Shown one piece after another: positions 9,085-24,733 of a DNA stretch of 64,000 bases (positions are counted from its first letter, which is position 1; each line of letters opens with the position of its first letter). The stretch covers positions 1-64,000 of the forward strand of contig NZ_CAMLGS010000003.1 of NCBI RefSeq assembly GCF_946479685.1, given 5' to 3'. The notes under the pieces were generated by a model, which did no database searches, was not told the origin of the DNA, and was given only the letters and a program-made list of their open reading frames with translations. A program made the translations under genes and the position numbers. The stretch is from an uncultured Methylotenera sp. (GTDB lineage: Bacteria; Pseudomonadota; Gammaproteobacteria; Burkholderiales; Methylophilaceae).

Positions 9085-11364
9085 TTGAGACTATTCATAT
9101 CCATTATTTTCGCTCTCTACGCCAACACGGGCTTTGCACTAAGCCTAGGTGAAGCTACGCTTAAATCGTACCTGGGTGAATCACTCACTGTTAAATTAAG
9201 CGTCACTGACGTCGAAAAGTCGCCAGATCCCAGCTGCTTCACCATCACAGACACCAACGACACGCCGGCCTTTAAGAAAGCCTTTTCGACAGTAAGCTCG
9301 CAGAAAGAAGGTTATTTACTCACCATCACCACGCAATCGGTGATTAGCGAGCCGATTCTGAATTTACGCGCTTCCTACCATTGCGAACCGCAGTTGCATC
9401 GTGACTATGTTTTACTATTGGACCCTGCCGCCATCCAAGATGAATCTGCCAGCAGCAACACTGCTACCAGCCCGCCAACGGCTGCAACAAAACGCTCTAA
9501 CAAAAAAAGCAAACCTACAAGCAGTGCAGACACCAGCGGCCTAGACAAGACTGCAGCCAGCTACGCGGCTGACGACGCCAGCGACTATGCGCAGCCAGCC
9601 AAGGCCAAACGCAAATCGAAAAAACGCCATGCCAGTGCCGCATCTAGCGCTGATGACAAAATCATGGAAGCCTATGTAGGCAAGCAGCAAAACAGTACCA
9701 AGCAAACACCGGTTACTAGTGAACCTAGCGCAGCGGTGAAACCGGACACAACCAGCAAACCATATTTGAGCATTTCTGGCGGCAGCATGACAACGGATGC
9801 GTCTGGCGCACAACACAATCTTAGCCTGCAGTTTGAAACGCAGCTGGATTTGAACCGCGCACCACCAACTACCACACCTAGCAATACAGACTTACAGGAC
9901 GAGGCGACCATGATGTCGAATCGGTTAGCACACCTGGAAAAGCAGATTATCAACCTGCAAGCGCAAAACACATTATTAAAGAATGAAGCCGAGCAAGCCA
10001 AAAATGCGCTCGCTGAGCAGCAATCTGGCTGGCTTAACTACGCCTGGATGATTGCAGCAGCGGTGCTGGCATTGGCCGCACTTGAGTGGCTACGCCGCAC
10101 CATTATTACCAGACGCCTGATTAAGCAAGAGCAGAACTGGTTTGACGCAAACGAAGACGCAGATAGCGAATCAACCTCGCTCACGGCCGCTATGCAGCCA
10201 ACAACTGATTACAAAGCGAGCAACCAGAGCAGCCCTGCAGACAGCTTTTTTGACGACGATACTGACGATGAATACACGCCAGTGGCATCAACCAAAAGCG
10301 GCATATTGACGCCTGCAGAAAATGTGAATGATGAGCACGATAGCATTATCGACAATGCTGATGTGTTTATCGAGCATGACCGCCCACAACTGGCAATACA
10401 GTTACTGCAAAATCATTTAAATGACTTCCCAACCGAGTCTCCCAAAGTTTGGCTGAAACTGCTATCACTGCTCGCCAAAGAAGGGCCAGAAGCTGAGTAC
10501 ACGGAAACTGTAGTAGAAGCCAACAAATACTTTAACATCAAAGCCCCCGACTTTGGCGACGCCAACAATGAGGATACTTCATCCATAGAGGACTTTTCCA
10601 ATATCGTGGCTAGACTTGAAGGCGCTTGGGGCTCGCCATTTGCGGTTAAGTTCTTAAATGATTTGATTTACGACCAATACGCACAGCCAGCAGAGGGCTT
10701 CTCAGCCAGCAATTTCGAAGAACTATTCTTCTTAAAACGGATTGCCGAACTGCTCAACACGGGTATTGCTGCCAACCAACATACGCCGCATCGAAACACC
10801 ACCGTCACAAAAGCTGAGCGCAGCAGCACAGCACATAGCGCTTTAGATAACTCAGCATTTAATAGCGCTGCGTTTAATAGCGACGCTTTTGATGATGACA
10901 ACCCTTTTGACAACGCGACAACTAGTGAATACGCGAAAAAACCAAGAGCCAGCACAATTAGTGATGCAGATTTCACGGTTGCATCTCTGCCTGAGATGCC
11001 GGAGCAAGCAGCATGGAGCAAGCCTACACAGGAGGAAATGAATACGCAGTTCGCGAACTCACCTTTCCAAAAAGTGCCATCTTACGAAGTGGACATGCTA
11101 GCAGACTTTGATGACCACATTGCAGCTACGGCGCCTACCTTTGGCCATGCGGCAGAAGAACCAACCATGCCAACCGAGGTAAAAACTGCGCCTGCGGAAA
11201 TGGCAGAAGAGTTTCTGTTCCCTTTAGATATTTACGCAGACGAAACAGTGCCAGCAGAAGTTGCAACAGATGAGACAGACAATCAAGCTGTGAGCAAAAA
11301 AGGTAAAGACTCCAATATTATTGAATGGGATTTACCCAACTCTAATAATAACTCCAAACACTGA
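9085..11364 (+). CDS. FimV/TspA-like envelope protein
   Basis: FimV-type proteins link the wall to polar type IV pilus and c-di-GMP-controlled functions. The 759-residue product has a signal peptide (cleavage likely near residue 18) and then SLGEATLKSYLGESLTVKL, an abbreviated version of the FimV N-terminal domain. Next come a low-complexity Ser/Thr/Lys-rich stretch, a coiled coil at about 276-312, one membrane helix at about 315-335, and a long acidic cytoplasmic tail with a TPR-like segment near 430-480. A LysM domain is not evident. The short repeat NSAFNSAAFNSDAF lies near residue 590. Start TTG has no strong ribosome site. The specific symbol is withheld because similarity is weak outside the ends. 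Confidence 0.7.
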   Translation: MRLFISIIFALYANTGFALSLGEATLKSYLGESLTVKLSVTDVEKSPDPSCFTITDTNDTPAFKKAFSTVSSQKEGYLLTITTQSVISEPILNLRASYHCEPQLHRDYVLLLDPAAIQDESASSNTATSPPTAATKRSNKKSKPTSSADTSGLDKTAASYAADDASDYAQPAKAKRKSKKRHASAASSADDKIMEAYVGKQQNSTKQTPVTSEPSAAVKPDTTSKPYLSISGGSMTTDASGAQHNLSLQFETQLDLNRAPPTTTPSNTDLQDEATMMSNRLAHLEKQIINLQAQNTLLKNEAEQAKNALAEQQSGWLNYAWMIAAAVLALAALEWLRRTIITRRLIKQEQNWFDANEDADSESTSLTAAMQPTTDYKASNQSSPADSFFDDDTDDEYTPVASTKSGILTPAENVNDEHDSIIDNADVFIEHDRPQLAIQLLQNHLNDFPTESPKVWLKLLSLLAKEGPEAEYTETVVEANKYFNIKAPDFGDANNEDTSSIEDFSNIVARLEGAWGSPFAVKFLNDLIYDQYAQPAEGFSASNFEELFFLKRIAELLNTGIAANQHTPHRNTTVTKAERSSTAHSALDNSAFNSAAFNSDAFDDDNPFDNATTSEYAKKPRASTISDADFTVASLPEMPEQAAWSKPTQEEMNTQFANSPFQKVPSYEVDMLADFDDHIAATAPTFGHAAEEPTMPTEVKTAPAEMAEEFLFPLDIYADETVPAEVATDETDNQAVSKKGKDSNIIEWDLPNSNNNSKH

Positions 11365-18861: not shown

Positions 18862-19596
18862 TTAACACCAATCCGGACTTGGCAACGCGCTAAATACGGA
18901 ACGCAAGCCATCGGCCCAGCCTTGGCGGATTTGTACGTAATACGGGTCGGCCTCGGTAATGCGCTGCTGACAGTCCGCATGCAGGCTATCCGTGCGATAA
19001 ATCAGCAAATCAATCGGTGTGGCTACCGAAACATTGCTGCGTATGGTGGAATCAAACGAAATCAGCACGCATTTCACGGTGTCCATGATGTCGCTGTTTT
19101 GCTCCACCACACGGTCGATAATGGGCTTGCCGTATTTGGTTTCACCTATCTGAAAATACGGCGTCTCCTGCGTGGATTCTATAAAGTTACCCGCCGCATA
19201 AACATTGAACAAACGTGGACGCTCTCCCTTAATTTGACCGCCCACCAGGATGCTGGCATTAAAATCAATCTGATGATTTTTAAGGTGTTCACCATCGCGC
19301 TCAAACGTCGCCCGTAATTCAGCTCCCACCAATTCTGCCGCATCAAACAAGCTATCTACATTATGTAAGTGTTTACTATCAGGCGCATTTTTCGCCACGC
19401 GCGCGCGTAGTGCATTCACCACTGACTGCGTAATCGCCAGATTACCTGCCGTCAGTAGCACGATCACGCGCTCGTTCTTCAGCTCAAAAACATGCATTTT
19501 TGGCGTAGAAGCCACCTGATCCACGCCTGCATTGGTGCGCGTGTCAGAAGCCAATACCAATCCTTGTTTCAGTAATAAACCGACACAATAAGTCAT
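18862..19596 (-). CDS. Anbu, bacterial proteasome/HslV-like peptidase
   Basis: Anbu is an N-terminal nucleophile hydrolase related to proteasome beta subunits and HslV, and forms open helical or ring assemblies. The 244-residue protein begins MTYCVGLLLKQGLVLASDTR. Removing Met exposes the catalytic threonine, and Asp18 (SDTRTNAG) and Lys33 (TPKMHVF) complete the usual Thr-Asp-Lys set. TAGNLAITQSVV and the SFDSTIRSNVSVATPIDLLIY region are typical. It is the last gene of a run with an ATP-grasp, alpha-E, transglutaminase and HPPD-like gene, the neighbourhood in which Anbu is known to occur. Natural substrates are not known. Confidence 0.92.
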   Translation of the reverse strand: MTYCVGLLLKQGLVLASDTRTNAGVDQVASTPKMHVFELKNERVIVLLTAGNLAITQSVVNALRARVAKNAPDSKHLHNVDSLFDAAELVGAELRATFERDGEHLKNHQIDFNASILVGGQIKGERPRLFNVYAAGNFIESTQETPYFQIGETKYGKPIIDRVVEQNSDIMDTVKCVLISFDSTIRSNVSVATPIDLLIYRTDSLHADCQQRITEADPYYVQIRQGWADGLRSVFSALPSPDWC

Positions 19597-19718
19597 AATT
19601 TTTGTTTAATTTGGAAGAATCGCCATCATACCATTTTGCGTCATTGCTCGCTAAAAAACTACGGCATAGTGCCGCCTGCATTTCTGGCAAAAATCAACGC
19701 ATTGCCTACGGTAAACTG

Positions 19719-20927
19719 CTACATAAAACCTGCAGCTTCCGTCAGCTTGGCCACATTGTCTTTGGTGAAAAAACCGTTAAATCGGCCATAACGCTGCACG
19801 TACTCGATAATCAACGACGAGTGTTCGGACGCATTGGAGAAAATCTGTTTCAACCCCTGCTCTTTTGAACCAATCACATCCAGCAAGAAGCCATTGCCAT
19901 TTTGTGAAATCGCATCCACCACAATATCAATATGCTCTTTGCCGTCACGCTCACCGTCTTTGACGGCAACCGCCATATGGTGCAAACGCGGCCCGTAGTT
20001 ACGTACAAACACCTCGGTAGGCGATGGAAAATGCTCTAAATGGCTGATGAAATAAGGCGTGTTATTGGCAGTAAACACTTTGGCTGGCGACTTGGACTCG
20101 GGCAGATGATGTGCACTTTTGGTGATATTGGTCGATGAATTCTGGTCTTTAATGTTATACGCACCCCAGAAGTAATAACTAGACCATGATAGATATTCCA
20201 AAATGGCGACTTCGCGGTTCTGGCTATAAACACGGGTGGCCAGATGGTCTAACGGCAACAGTAAATCGCTAATACCCAGTTTTTTCTGCAAAGCCTTGGC
20301 ATTTTCGTAAGCAAGCTGCGCCTCAGGCCGTATTGTACTCAAGCCCAGTGCATACACCCGCGCCTCATCAGGCAATCGCTCCAAGTACGCCACTACGTTG
20401 TGGGTATAGGGTGAAGGTTTGCTTACCGCCAGATTACCTGGAAGCTCCAGTTTGCGCACATCATCCTGACTAAAAAACCGAAAATCGCGCGCCTGCTGCA
20501 AATCCACCACACTATGCAAATTGCTGACGCGCAACACCTCGCCGATATAGCGACTATTCGGCTTTTTCGCGCCTACCGGATAAACCTCATTCAGGCTGCG
20601 GAAAATATCGCGCACATTAGGGTCTTTGACCTCACGCAACAGAATATCCGGCGAGTTAAGGTCTATGCGCAAAATATGCGTTAAATGCTGCTCGCTCTCT
20701 AGCGTAACCAGGTAATGATAGGGAGTCATTAACGCCAGCTCTGCGATGTACTGAATGGCATGGCCAGGATCCACCGAAATCATTAGCGCATCAATTTCAT
20801 GAATCATTGCAGTCAACCCCAGAGCATCGCGCTCTTCCAGCAGGCGAATCAGGTTTTCTTCAAAGAAGCTGGAGTTTATTTTGTCGCCGTGGCGCTCAAA
20901 TGCAAGTGAGCTAACTGGTTCATTCAT
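19719..20927 (-). CDS. HPPD-like vicinal oxygen chelate protein of unknown function
   Basis: I do not recognise a named gene. The C-terminal half of this 402-residue protein resembles 4-hydroxyphenylpyruvate dioxygenase. LPLDHLATRV (His228) matches the first metal ligand strand, YGPRLHHMAVAV (His317) the second, QIFS matches the QIFT segment, and LIIEYVQRYGRFNGFF (Glu375) matches the FFEIIQR-GF-G end. The spacing from His317 to Glu375 (58) is shorter than in true HPPD (about 80). The N-terminal 220 residues do not look like a VOC domain. No tyrosine-catabolism genes are nearby. It lies between the transglutaminase and Anbu genes on the same strand, so it probably modifies something in that system. 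Function is unassigned; an Fe(II) oxygenase is the leading guess. Confidence 0.75.
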   Translation of the reverse strand: MNEPVSSLAFERHGDKINSSFFEENLIRLLEERDALGLTAMIHEIDALMISVDPGHAIQYIAELALMTPYHYLVTLESEQHLTHILRIDLNSPDILLREVKDPNVRDIFRSLNEVYPVGAKKPNSRYIGEVLRVSNLHSVVDLQQARDFRFFSQDDVRKLELPGNLAVSKPSPYTHNVVAYLERLPDEARVYALGLSTIRPEAQLAYENAKALQKKLGISDLLLPLDHLATRVYSQNREVAILEYLSWSSYYFWGAYNIKDQNSSTNITKSAHHLPESKSPAKVFTANNTPYFISHLEHFPSPTEVFVRNYGPRLHHMAVAVKDGERDGKEHIDIVVDAISQNGNGFLLDVIGSKEQGLKQIFSNASEHSSLIIEYVQRYGRFNGFFTKDNVAKLTEAAGFM

Positions 20928-21018: not shown

Positions 21019-21924
21019 CTACTGCTGCTGCGCATACTGCGCCTGCCGCTCCAACGCAGCCTCGGTACGCGCTACGCGGTTTAATTGTGCCTGCTCCAAC
21101 AATTGTACCGCGTTAATTTTACTAGGTGGCGTTTGTGCCAGGCCGGCCTGATTCACGATTACACTAGACGCCATGCCCTCGATGCCGCCACCTGAACGCA
21201 TGCCGCTAATCGGGCTGGCACTGCGGTAATCCAGACCAGTGGCTAGGCGCACATGGGTTTCACCCGCACGGCAGCCATTAGATACATCAAAGCTCTGCCA
21301 GCCAACACCGGCAACAAACACATCTGCCCATGCATGAGTCTGCATTAAACTACCATCTGCTGTAAACAAATATCCACTCACATAACGTGCCGGCAATGCA
21401 ATGGCACGACAGCAGGCAATAAACACATGGGCATGGTCTTGACACACGCCCTGCCCCAACGCAAATGCCTCAACGGCTGAAGTAGTAACCTGCGTTGCGC
21501 CTTTAAGATATTGCACACGCGCTCGCAACGCATGCATCATATCCTCCAACGCAGCATTCTGGCGCTGCGGTTGCAAGTATGCCTGAGCAAACGCGAGCAT
21601 CTCTTCGCTGTACTGCGTAAGCTGCGTATCGCGCAAATAAATAGGCAACGGCAGAGCCAGATGCTGCGACACCGCGTCCAGCCCAGTCTCCACCTGTCCA
21701 CATGCCATAATCAGCAATTCGCTATGTGGCGCATCCACGACTAAAGTATGCGTCATATTGCCATAGGCATCCTGCGAGGGCTGCAGCTCACCATTCACTT
21801 TAATATCCCAATGCCGCACATGCTGACCAAAGCCATGCTGCGGCGTGAGGCGCAGTTCCTGTATGGTGTAGTTCACATCCTCACTATAAGCGTAGCGCGT
21901 GTGATGTTCTATATTAAGTAACAT
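21019..21924 (-). CDS. Transglutaminase-like cysteine protease family protein
   Basis: Papain-like fold protein that could cleave, transfer or amidate peptide bonds. The 301-residue sequence starts with the family's N-terminal beta domain (NIEHHTRYAYSEDVNYTIQELRL). The catalytic triad is Cys161 in GVCQDHAHVF, His197 in THAWADVFV and Asp213 in SFDVSNG. It lies 22 bases downstream of the alpha-E gene, and this pair with a permuted ATP-grasp protein is a conserved set known from amidoligase surveys. A cytoplasmic location is likely, since no signal peptide is visible. Confidence 0.9.
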   Translation of the reverse strand: MLLNIEHHTRYAYSEDVNYTIQELRLTPQHGFGQHVRHWDIKVNGELQPSQDAYGNMTHTLVVDAPHSELLIMACGQVETGLDAVSQHLALPLPIYLRDTQLTQYSEEMLAFAQAYLQPQRQNAALEDMMHALRARVQYLKGATQVTTSAVEAFALGQGVCQDHAHVFIACCRAIALPARYVSGYLFTADGSLMQTHAWADVFVAGVGWQSFDVSNGCRAGETHVRLATGLDYRSASPISGMRSGGGIEGMASSVIVNQAGLAQTPPSKINAVQLLEQAQLNRVARTEAALERQAQYAQQQ

Positions 21925-21946: not shown

Positions 21947-22903
21947 TTAAGAAATGCTTAAAAAGGTTTTATGCACTTCCACACCCAATTTGTTATTGGC
22001 GGAAATAAAGTCACTTAAGAACTCATGCAAGCCGCGCTGGAAAATGTCGCGCATTTTGCCAAAGCGTAATTTTGAATGCAGTTCACCCGCCATGCGCCTG
22101 CACTCACCGGCACGTGAGCTGGACAACTGTTCCAGTATCGAAGTAATTTCATCAAAGCAGGCATGTAGTGACCTAGGCATATCGCGCCTGAGTACCAGCA
22201 GCTCTGCCACTCGCCACGGCTCTATGGTGTCGCTGAATATCTTTTGGTAGGCCTGAAACGCAGACACCGAGCGCAGCACTGCACTCCACTCGTAATAGTC
22301 CACCGCACCACCCACCTCTTCTTGCTCTGGCAGCAATAAGTGATACTTCACATCCAGCAGACGCGCTGTGTTGTCGGCACGCTCGATAAACGTACCTAAG
22401 CGTACAAAGCTAAAGGCATCATCGCGCAGCATAGTGCCAAAACACACGCCACGGAATAAGTGCGAGCGCGCTTTCACCCAATCACAAAACTCACTCAAAC
22501 CACTTTGTGATAAATCCTGCCCAAAAAACTGCCCAAACTCCAGCCACAGCGAGTTGATGTTCTCCCAGGTTTCCGAGGTCATGGCCACGCGCACCGCACG
22601 TGCATTCTCCCTAGCGCTGCGTAGCGAGCTATAAATACTGGACGGGTTATTCATGTCCATCGCGAGATAATGAATCACGCCGGCTGCGGTATATTCCTGC
22701 TGGGTTTCATTAAAGTAATCACGCTCATAGGCTTCTACATTGCCAGAAATCTCTAGTGCCGGCAGCCATAGCGCTGCCTCGCTTTCCGCCGCGTTTGGCA
22801 CTAAAGACATGTTGTAGGTCACATCCAGCACACGCGCCATGTTTTCTGCACGCTCAATGTAGCGTGCCATCCAATACAGATGATCTGCCGTTCTGCTTAA
22901 CAT
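21947..22903 (-). CDS. Alpha-E domain protein
   Basis: All-helical protein of the alpha-E family (DUF403), always found with a circularly permuted ATP-grasp protein. The 318 residues open with the diagnostic MLSRTADHLYWMARYIERAE and continue with SLWLEFGQFFGQ and FVRLGTFIERADNTARLLDVKY, an internally repeated arrangement of conserved acidic and arginine residues. The role is not established; it may hold the peptide substrate or act as partner of the ATP-grasp enzyme. Its start overlaps the ATP-grasp stop by seven bases, so both are translated together. Confidence 0.93.
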   Translation of the reverse strand: MLSRTADHLYWMARYIERAENMARVLDVTYNMSLVPNAAESEAALWLPALEISGNVEAYERDYFNETQQEYTAAGVIHYLAMDMNNPSSIYSSLRSARENARAVRVAMTSETWENINSLWLEFGQFFGQDLSQSGLSEFCDWVKARSHLFRGVCFGTMLRDDAFSFVRLGTFIERADNTARLLDVKYHLLLPEQEEVGGAVDYYEWSAVLRSVSAFQAYQKIFSDTIEPWRVAELLVLRRDMPRSLHACFDEITSILEQLSSSRAGECRRMAGELHSKLRFGKMRDIFQRGLHEFLSDFISANNKLGVEVHKTFLSIS

Positions 22904-24387
22904 AGCACTGCCTCCGCTTGATTGATATTAGCCTTGCTAGGCACGGGCATGTCTTCCTCTAGCACCCAGGTATCTTTGGTGCCGCCGCCTTGAGATGAAT
23001 TCACCACCAACGAACCCTCTTTCATCGCCACGCGGCACAACGCACCTGGCACCAAGCTGCAGGTTTTGCCTGATAATACAAATGGACGCAAATCCACATG
23101 GCGCGGCGCAATGCCTTCTGCCACCAAGGTTGGGCAGGTAGAGAGCGCCAGCGTAGGCTGCGCAATGTAGCTGGCTGGGCTAGAGATGATGCGTAAGCGG
23201 AACTCCTCTAGCTCCTGCTTGCTAGCGGCAGTCCCAACCAGCATGCCATAGCCACCGGAGCCTTGTACTTCTTTCACCACCAATTCATCCAGGTGTGCCA
23301 AGGTATAGGCTAAATCATCCTCTTTGCTTAGCTCATAGGTAGGCACGTTTTCCAACAGCGGCTCTTCACCCAAGTAAAAACGGATCATGGCCGGCACATG
23401 AATATAAGTCGCCTTGTCGTCTGCCACACCGGTGCCTACCGCATTAGCCAAGGTCACACCGCCATTGCGGTATACCGATAGCAAGCCTGGAACCCCCAGC
23501 ATGGAGTTGGCGTTAAACACCAGTGGATCGATATAGTCATCATCTATGCGGCGGTAAATCACATCCACACGCTGTGGCCCTTCTGTGGTGCGCATATATA
23601 CCGCATTATTACGTACAAACAAATCCTGCCCTTCCACCAGCTCGACACCCATTTGCTGCGCCAAAAACGCATGTTCAAAATAGGCACTGTTGTAGGCACC
23701 GGGCGACAGCACAACTACCGTAGGTTCTTGTACGTTGGTTTGCGCCACCGCACGCAGGTTGTTGAGCAACACTTGCGGGTAGTGCTCCACCGGGGCGATC
23801 GGATACTGACGGAATAGCTCAGGAAATAATCGCATCATCATTTTGCGGTCTTCCAGCATATAAGACACACCAGACGGCGTACGTAAATTATCTTCCAGCA
23901 CGTAAAACTGTGATTCGCTAGTGCGCACTAGATCCACACCCGCAATATGCGCATAAATCTGGTTAGGCACATCCACACCAAACATCTCCGGGCGGTATTG
24001 GCTATTGGCCAAAATGGTCGCCGGCATGATGCCAGCCTTGATAATGTCCTGGTCATGGTAGATATCATGCAAAAACATATTCAACGCTTTTACCCGCTGA
24101 ATTGAGCCTGCAGACAAATGCCGCCACTCGCTTGCCGACAAAATACGCGGCAGCACATCAAACGGAATCAAACGCTCTGCGCCATCATTCTCGCCATACA
24201 CATTAAAAGTAATACCAACTCGGCGAAACAACAGCTCGGCCTCCATGCGCTTGCTGTTGAGCTGATGCTGCGGCACATTCTTGAGCCACTGGTGATAGGC
24301 TTTATAAATCTCACGCACGCCCTCAGGGCTGCTTGCGGCTAAATCCAGTTGCATCTCATTAAAAAATTGCGGTTGTGATTTTTTCAT
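22897..24387 (-). CDS. Circularly permuted ATP-grasp (type 2) protein
   Basis: Predicted ATP-dependent carboxylate-amine ligase that would join amino groups to a peptide or small molecule. Conserved pieces include RPLIPFDVLPRIL-like residues, the AGVDLVRTSESQFYVLEDN segment, YRRIDDDYIDPL and KEVQGSGGYGMLVG. These place the ATP-grasp motifs in the permuted order of the DUF404/407 family. An upstream ATG at 24411 is open, but GGGAAGGC at 24395-24402 is spaced eight bases from the ATG at 24387, so I take that start (496 residues). It is the first gene of the cassette. Confidence 0.92.
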   Translation of the reverse strand: MKKSQPQFFNEMQLDLAASSPEGVREIYKAYHQWLKNVPQHQLNSKRMEAELLFRRVGITFNVYGENDGAERLIPFDVLPRILSASEWRHLSAGSIQRVKALNMFLHDIYHDQDIIKAGIMPATILANSQYRPEMFGVDVPNQIYAHIAGVDLVRTSESQFYVLEDNLRTPSGVSYMLEDRKMMMRLFPELFRQYPIAPVEHYPQVLLNNLRAVAQTNVQEPTVVVLSPGAYNSAYFEHAFLAQQMGVELVEGQDLFVRNNAVYMRTTEGPQRVDVIYRRIDDDYIDPLVFNANSMLGVPGLLSVYRNGGVTLANAVGTGVADDKATYIHVPAMIRFYLGEEPLLENVPTYELSKEDDLAYTLAHLDELVVKEVQGSGGYGMLVGTAASKQELEEFRLRIISSPASYIAQPTLALSTCPTLVAEGIAPRHVDLRPFVLSGKTCSLVPGALCRVAMKEGSLVVNSSQGGGTKDTWVLEEDMPVPSKANINQAEAVLC

Positions 24388-24733
24388 GATGTAAGCCTTC
24401 CCTTGATACATTAAGCATAAGCAAAGGGCATACCAGATAATTAACTCAATAAAATCATCAAGTTAATAATAGGAAAAATGTTTTATGCAACCTAGCGCCC
24501 ACTATAGGTGCATAAACGAACAGATGCCATCAATTACGCAAGATTAGTGTGCAGGTTGGCGGCGATAGATTCGCCATAGATTAAGCGCTGGATGAATAGC
24601 TAGGCTTAAGCTGAGGAATATAGGGGCGACATGAACTACGTCATGCAAGTAAGGTGCGAAGCATGCAGGTGCAACGCAACAGCACACCCGCATGCTTAAA
24701 GAATTATCTGAATTTACTCAATACTTTTTAGAT
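24388..24733. other. 346-base spacer between yicC and the ATP-grasp cassette
   Basis: No credible gene. It holds a long hairpin at 24659-24697 (AAGCATGC, mismatch, GGTG pairing with CACC and GCATGCTT, loop of 13) about 40 bases after the yicC stop, without a T-run. A small GGCGA/TCGCC hairpin lies at 24561-24575. The side near the ATP-grasp gene is AT-rich and probably holds its promoter, but no clear -35/-10 pair stands out. Confidence 0.5.

What the first reader, a model, noticed from the sequence alone, without database searches (positions are those of the whole stretch)
19719..20927. HPPD-like protein with plausible His-His-Glu iron site inside the Anbu cassette
The C-terminal half shows three HPPD-type landmarks in order with His228, His317 and Glu375 as candidate Fe(II) ligands, yet it is not a tyrosine-degradation context and the N-terminal 220 residues lack a VOC look. 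An oxygenase joined to a ligase, transglutaminase and proteasome homologue would suggest oxidative tailoring of a peptide. This pairing is not one I know to have been described.
Basis: partly seen in the sequence, partly recalled or inferred. Interest (0 to 1): 0.8.

Follow-up and report, generated by a model that had tools for sequence, protein, structure and literature searches.

The report
HPPD-fold enzyme in the Anbu cassette
A bacterial protein of unknown function next to the proteasome relative Anbu is predicted to be built like a known iron-and-oxygen enzyme of tyrosine breakdown, keeps its three metal-binding residues, and travels with a puzzling set of peptide-bond-making genes whose product is not known.

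Summary

X lies within 5 kb of ATP-grasp, Alpha-E, transglutaminase or Anbu genes in 46 of 65 loci, in 25 arrangements. Its partner is the whole ATP-grasp/Alpha-E/transglutaminase system, not Anbu alone. X is not HPPD: two pocket glutamines are replaced, and an Arg four residues after the first ligand resembles the acid-binding Arg of HglS.

Best reading: an Fe(II), 2-oxo-acid-consuming oxygenase for an acidic substrate, serving this pathway. Iron, oxygenase chemistry, substrate and any peptide target are untested. The searches I could run found no published account.

The parts
19719..20927 (-). X: 402-aa HPPD-fold, two-domain VOC protein with a candidate His-His-Glu metal site
   Evidence: ORF; fold; conservation
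20379..20804 (-). X residues 42-183: N-terminal VOC-like domain
   Evidence: secondary structure of the model; coordinates
19791..20261 (-). X residues 223-379: C-terminal VOC domain with the candidate metal site
   Evidence: coordinates
20244..20246 (-). codon of His228, candidate metal ligand 1
   Evidence: 281 of 281 rows; on HPPD ligand His; codon
20232..20234 (-). codon of Arg232, proposed to bind the far acid group of the substrate
   Evidence: 280 of 281 rows; same offset as the Arg of HGLS proteins; role inferred
19977..19979 (-). codon of His317, candidate metal ligand 2
   Evidence: 280 of 280 rows; codon
19803..19805 (-). codon of Glu375, candidate metal ligand 3
   Evidence: 280 of 280 rows; codon
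18862..19596 (-). Anbu-like proteasome homologue; Thr1, Asp17 and Lys32 kept in 11 of 11 aligned Anbu sequences
   Evidence: Pfam Proteasome; alignment
21019..21924 (-). transglutaminase-like protein; candidate triad Cys161, His197, Asp213
   Evidence: Pfam; sequence; positions; the triad assignment is from recalled family knowledge
21947..22903 (-). Alpha-E protein
   Evidence: Pfam PF04168
22897..24411 (-). circularly permuted ATP-grasp type 2
   Evidence: Pfam PF14403/PF04174

Best explanation
X is a new HPPD-fold branch of the VOC superfamily: a mononuclear non-heme Fe(II) enzyme with His228, His317 and Glu375 as ligands. It most likely binds a 2-oxo acid through its keto and carboxylate oxygens, activates O2, releases CO2 and hydroxylates the rest of the same molecule, as HPPD, hydroxymandelate synthase and HglS do. 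Arg232 near the metal suggests that the far end of the substrate carries an acid or amide group. X serves the ATP-grasp/Alpha-E/transglutaminase(/Anbu) pathway, probably by making or tailoring the carboxylic acid that the ATP-grasp enzyme activates. Shown here by computation: fold, ligand conservation, genomic association. Inferred: iron, O2 use, 2-oxo acid, acidic substrate, step in the pathway.
Against: No coordinates were available, so the geometry of the three residues was not measured. Profile similarity to HPPD is weak (20% probability). His-His-Glu sites also occur in VOC enzymes that are not oxygenases (recalled, e.g. FosA). 14 of 50 X loci with full flanks have no cassette gene within 5 kb, and the five Haliea-type loci have none in the flanks held. 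One short HGLS protein, L138, lacks the Arg, so the motif is not strict there. The Arg argument also needs that HglS Arg74 is four residues after a ligand His, which I recall (His70).
Confidence: 0.55

Rival explanations
1. X is a metal-dependent VOC enzyme that is not an oxygenase (isomerase, lyase or transferase in the style of glyoxalase I, methylmalonyl-CoA epimerase or FosA), acting on a cassette intermediate.
For: The only sub-threshold Pfam hit is Glyoxalase_4, and the profile aligned weakly (E 0.8) with a glyoxalase, 3oa4. Use of a His-His-Glu site by non-oxygenase VOC enzymes is recalled.
Against: Two-domain, full-length match to HPPD with all 50 shown rows HPPD or HMS; the C-terminal EYVQR...GFF...N region aligns with the HPPD C-terminal region.
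Confidence: 0.2
2. X tailors a peptide or a ligase-bound peptide: the 2-oxo acid group is part of a peptide-like cassette product.
For: Neighbourhood; published suggestions that the cassette makes or tags peptides (PMC5666114, PMC6376114, passages).
Against: No precursor peptide was seen and none was searched for; the characterised relatives act on small 2-oxo acids (PMC7286885 passages).
Confidence: 0.12
3. X is a catabolic 2-oxo acid oxygenase (for instance acting on 2-oxoadipate as HglS does) that merely sits beside the cassette.
For: HGLS-like D-H-x-A-x-R motif; 14 of 50 loci unlinked; Haliea-type relatives without the cassette in the flanks held.
Against: 25 arrangements around the same few gene families and no other family recurring in more than four of the 42 loci plus window; no PF07063 match and no significant profile match to HGLS.
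Confidence: 0.08
4. X is a non-catalytic binding or regulatory protein that kept the HPPD fold.
For: The Gln positions of the HPPD pocket are replaced; N-terminal invariant residues (GDK, H81, E99, R126, Y127, E130) are unexplained.
Against: Complete conservation of the metal ligand set and many polar residues of the C-terminal domain.
Confidence: 0.05

Closest known systems
4-Hydroxyphenylpyruvate dioxygenase (HPPD, TIGR01263) and hydroxymandelate synthase
   Same: Two-domain VOC fold over nearly the full length; His-His-Glu in the same order and strands; N289 and Q361 at the HPPD Asn and Gln positions
   Different: No TIGR01263 match; Gln before the second ligand is His316, Gln of the (S)QI motif is Pro303, Asn after the first ligand is Arg232; no HPPD in 26 of 26 genomes tested
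HglS / DUF1338 (PF07063), 2-oxoadipate oxygenase
   Same: D-H-x-A-x-R at the first ligand; same general chemistry proposed (PMC7286885 passages)
   Different: No PF07063 match; profile comparison not significant; one short HGLS, L138, lacks the Arg; HglS has one central VOC domain (PMC7286885 passages), X two
Four-gene Anbu operon (ATP-grasp, Alpha-E, transglutaminase-like, Anbu)
   Same: All four genes, in the published order on one strand (PMC6376114 passages)
   Different: X is inserted between transglutaminase and Anbu; elsewhere it accompanies the cassette in other orders, or the long cassette with DUF2126

Membership tests
VOC superfamily | paired strand-helix-three-strand modules | tested here: met
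   predicted structure only; best structural matches are VOC enzymes
HPPD (TIGR01263) | curated family score | tested here: not met
   no NCBIfam family at E 0.1
HPPD (TIGR01263) | overall two-domain fold | tested here: met
HPPD (TIGR01263) | His-His-Glu ligands in register | tested here: met
   side-chain geometry not measured
HPPD (TIGR01263) | conserved pocket glutamines (three, recalled) | tested here: not met
   one kept (Q361), two replaced (P303, H316)
HPPD (TIGR01263) | Fe(II)- and O2-dependent turnover of 4-hydroxyphenylpyruvate | not testable with these tools
   needs purified protein
HGLS / DUF1338 (PF07063) | PF07063 match | tested here: not met
   no match at E 1 in 12 members or at E 0.01 in 64 members
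HGLS / DUF1338 (PF07063) | Arg four residues after the first ligand His | tested here: met
   280 of 281 rows; HGLS side
Anbu operon | ATP-grasp, Alpha-E, transglutaminase and Anbu together | tested here: met
Anbu operon | X co-transcribed with the four genes | not tested
   same strand; gaps of 22, 91 and 122 bases and one 7-base overlap from the coordinates; no transcript data

The most novel reading that the evidence does not exclude
X founds a new family of Fe(II), O2-dependent oxygenases for an acidic 2-oxo acid (or a ligase-made conjugate of one) that supplies missing chemistry of the ATP-grasp/Alpha-E/transglutaminase pathway, so that this pathway makes an oxidatively modified amide or peptide which Anbu then processes.
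Probability: 0.3. Interest if true: 0.85.

Novelty: new variant of a known kind. Interest (0 to 1): 0.7.

Why it matters
The product of the Anbu-type ATP-grasp/Alpha-E/transglutaminase cassette is unknown in the papers of which I saw passages: no peptidase activity was found for Anbu, and the ATP-grasp protein was only shown to release phosphate from ATP (PMC6376114). A conserved companion with recognisable chemistry gives a handle: a small 2-oxo acid and oxygen-uptake screen could name the first substrate of the pathway. It would also add a family to the intramolecular 2-oxo-acid oxygenases that Pfam and NCBIfam do not yet recognise.

Tried and rejected
X as canonical HPPD: rejected (no family match; pocket glutamines replaced). 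X as an HGLS/DUF1338 protein: not supported beyond the short motif. Defence system: no PADLOC match for the five cassette proteins at E 0.01. Plasmid-borne: no match in the plasmid collection. Viral relatives: nothing at E 1e-3 in BFVD. PDB by sequence: no hit for the single protein; the 12-sequence profile gave two insignificant rows, a ribosomal protein (E 0.059) and a glyoxalase (E 0.8). Anbu as the only partner: rejected, since L018 and L111 show only the long cassette in the flanks fetched and no Anbu was found in 3 of 29 genomes with X proper (assemblies may be incomplete). HGLS structures are not among the 50 VIA-align rows shown; that absence shows nothing. A consensus scan found a terminator-like hairpin between X and Anbu, but such sites were as frequent in shuffles (9 found, mean 8.9).

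Literature: ten searches. None listed a paper on an HPPD-like partner of this cassette. One search (HPPD with Anbu) listed one paper, a salt-stress transcriptome, seen in the listing only. One search had 58 papers, 25 listed; of these I saw passages of one (PMC8665760). Iyer et al. 2009 is not held and was not read.

Full report
What is there. The finding lies on the minus strand: a 402-codon ORF at 19719-20927, called X here. Upstream on the same strand are a circularly permuted ATP-grasp ligase (22897-24411), Alpha-E (21947-22903) and a transglutaminase-like protein (21019-21924); downstream come an Anbu-like proteasome homologue (18862-19596) and guanylate kinase. The closest named relatives are in Methylotenera: L001 and L002 have 91% identity and the same gene order. 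X has no match in Pfam or NCBIfam at E 0.1 and none in the PDB by sequence. Among the 120 relatives listed of 2831, any name given by a source is 'hypothetical protein'.

Metal site. In 282 aligned rows (241 proteins from two capped searches, 41 ORFs from loci and the window, some duplicates) H228 is in 281 of 281, H317 in 280 of 280 and E375 in 280 of 280 rows with a letter. Of 17 His in X only H81, H228, H316 and H317 are kept in 279 or more rows. 77 of 402 columns are at least 99.5% conserved, so conservation alone is not proof. Place in the fold is the stronger argument: H228 lies in strand 223-232, H317 in strand 316-322 and E375 in strand 373-379. A profile-profile alignment with ten HPPD sequences from genomes puts D227-H228 on the HPPD D-H, H316-H317 on Q-H and E375 on the Glu of FFExIQR, with low probability (20%, E 0.0011). 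The C-terminal half alone gives E 2.0e-4 to 2.6e-4, against about 0.07 for an unrelated Anbu profile. Side-chain geometry could not be measured.

Why it is not simply HPPD. In one search the Gln before HPPD's second ligand corresponds to H316 and the Gln of its QI motif to P303; both are invariant in X. HPPD has Asn four residues after the first ligand in 10 of 10 sequences; X has Arg in 280 of 281 rows. Arg at that offset occurs in HGLS/DUF1338 proteins: 15 of 16 distinct short ones fetched have D-H-x-A-x-R (for 15, picked with a pattern that asks for this Arg but losing none of the 15; the sixteenth, L138, reads D-H-F-A-I-I), and 16 of 16 long ones have R-H-G-A-I-R. [quoted passage not shown] that Arg74 lies four residues after a ligand His rests on my recall of His70 and on the motif. 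This suggests, but does not show, that X takes an acidic 2-oxo acid. Overall profile similarity to HGLS is not significant (E 0.04 to 0.2). The canonical HPPD model was over its cut-off in 0 of 26 genomes with X (25) or its Haliea-type relative (1), against 11 of 56 in a class sample that itself includes six of the genomes with a match.

Association. Left out: the five Haliea-type loci L033-L037 and the short loci L039-L086. Some of the 65 carry only a fragment of X or a broken copy (for instance L103, L109-L112). A homologue of ATP-grasp, Alpha-E, transglutaminase or Anbu lies within 5 kb in 46 of 65, and in 36 of the 50 with complete flanks; 14 of those 50 have none. There are 25 gene-order strings, some differing only by truncation or by the distance limit, with X before, after or between the other genes and on either strand. 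One link, L030, rests on a transglutaminase match alone. If a genome holds about ten such genes, an assumption, chance would give about 3%. In an all-against-all clustering of neighbours in 42 of these loci plus the window, the families recurring in 17 or more loci were X itself, ATP-grasp, Alpha-E, transglutaminase, Anbu and a protein of about 1100 aa that is a transglutaminase-DUF2126 fusion in the two members scanned; no other family occurred in more than four. In the class sample 30 of 369 genomes had a match to the X profile. Anbu was found in 26 of the 29 with X proper (some of these hold only fragments of X), in 0 of 1 with the Haliea-type relative, and in 4 of 15 genomes without X taken from the listed negatives (Fisher p 4.5e-5; the genomes are not independent). 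A phylum-wide draw had 7 of 398. X is thus an optional but specific companion of the cassette, seen in records named as beta-, gamma- and zetaproteobacteria, and not of Anbu alone.

Haliea-type branch. A relative at about 40% identity occurs in Halieaceae and, by source names, in Kiloniellaceae, Myxococcota and Planctomycetales. In the five loci seen no cassette gene matches in the flanks held, which are short on one side in some. By my reading of the translations, L033 lies beside genes for Der, BamB, HisS and IspG, and L093, L095 and L096, which carry X proper, share several of these neighbouring families. This suggests that the two branches are vertically related and that the cassette link arose in one of them.

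Most likely working. Inference: Fe(II) is held by H228, H317 and E375; the 2-oxo acid chelates the iron; O2 splits off CO2 and the oxo-iron hydroxylates the remainder; Arg232 fixes a distal acid or amide. The product would be a carboxylic acid, the natural input of an ATP-grasp ligase. The alternatives and their tests are listed under rivals.

Known or new. The four-gene Anbu operon and its suggested role in peptide synthesis or tagging are in print, with no activity found for Anbu and phosphate release by the ATP-grasp protein (PMC5666114 and PMC6376114, passages); no function was known in 2021 (PMC8665760, passages). Searches for HPPD with Anbu, for ATP-grasp with VOC and transglutaminase, for HPPD with ATP-grasp, and for the DUF names returned nothing on an HPPD-like partner. 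The library lacks most subscription papers and Iyer 2009, so this is absence from what I could search.

Noticed in passing
L011:11971-18001; L027:10358-13663: A long form of the same system: an ATP-grasp-Alpha-E fusion (about 850 aa; one scanned, L011) and a transglutaminase-DUF2126 fusion (about 1100 aa; two scanned) beside or near the short cassette.
   Followed up: partly
window 19661-19675 (-): Terminator-like hairpin with T stretch between X and Anbu; such sites are no commoner than in shuffled sequence, so it may mean nothing.
   Followed up: no
L093, L095, L096; L033, L036, L037: X proper and the Haliea-type relative share neighbouring housekeeping families (by eye der, bamB, hisS, ispG); an aminotransferase-family gene lies near X in L093, L095 and L096, as in L022, whose copy is Pfam Aminotran_1_2.
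   Followed up: partly
L033:6310-7998 and 10727-11119: Haliea-type relative lies between a ThDP-enzyme gene and a bacterial globin gene; an oxo-acid and oxygen theme that may be chance.
   Followed up: no
L021, L109, L111, L112: Interrupted or partial copies of X in some genomes (stop in L021; two frames in L109, partial matches with stops inside in L111 and L112); assembly error or decay not distinguished.
   Followed up: no
window 19719-20927 (-), residues 14-16, 81, 99, 126-130: The N-terminal domain of X has its own nearly invariant polar residues (GDK, H81, E99, R126, Y127, E130), with no known role.
   Followed up: no
G011 (L025 and L118): One genome carries two X copies, each in a cassette with a different gene order.
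   Followed up: no
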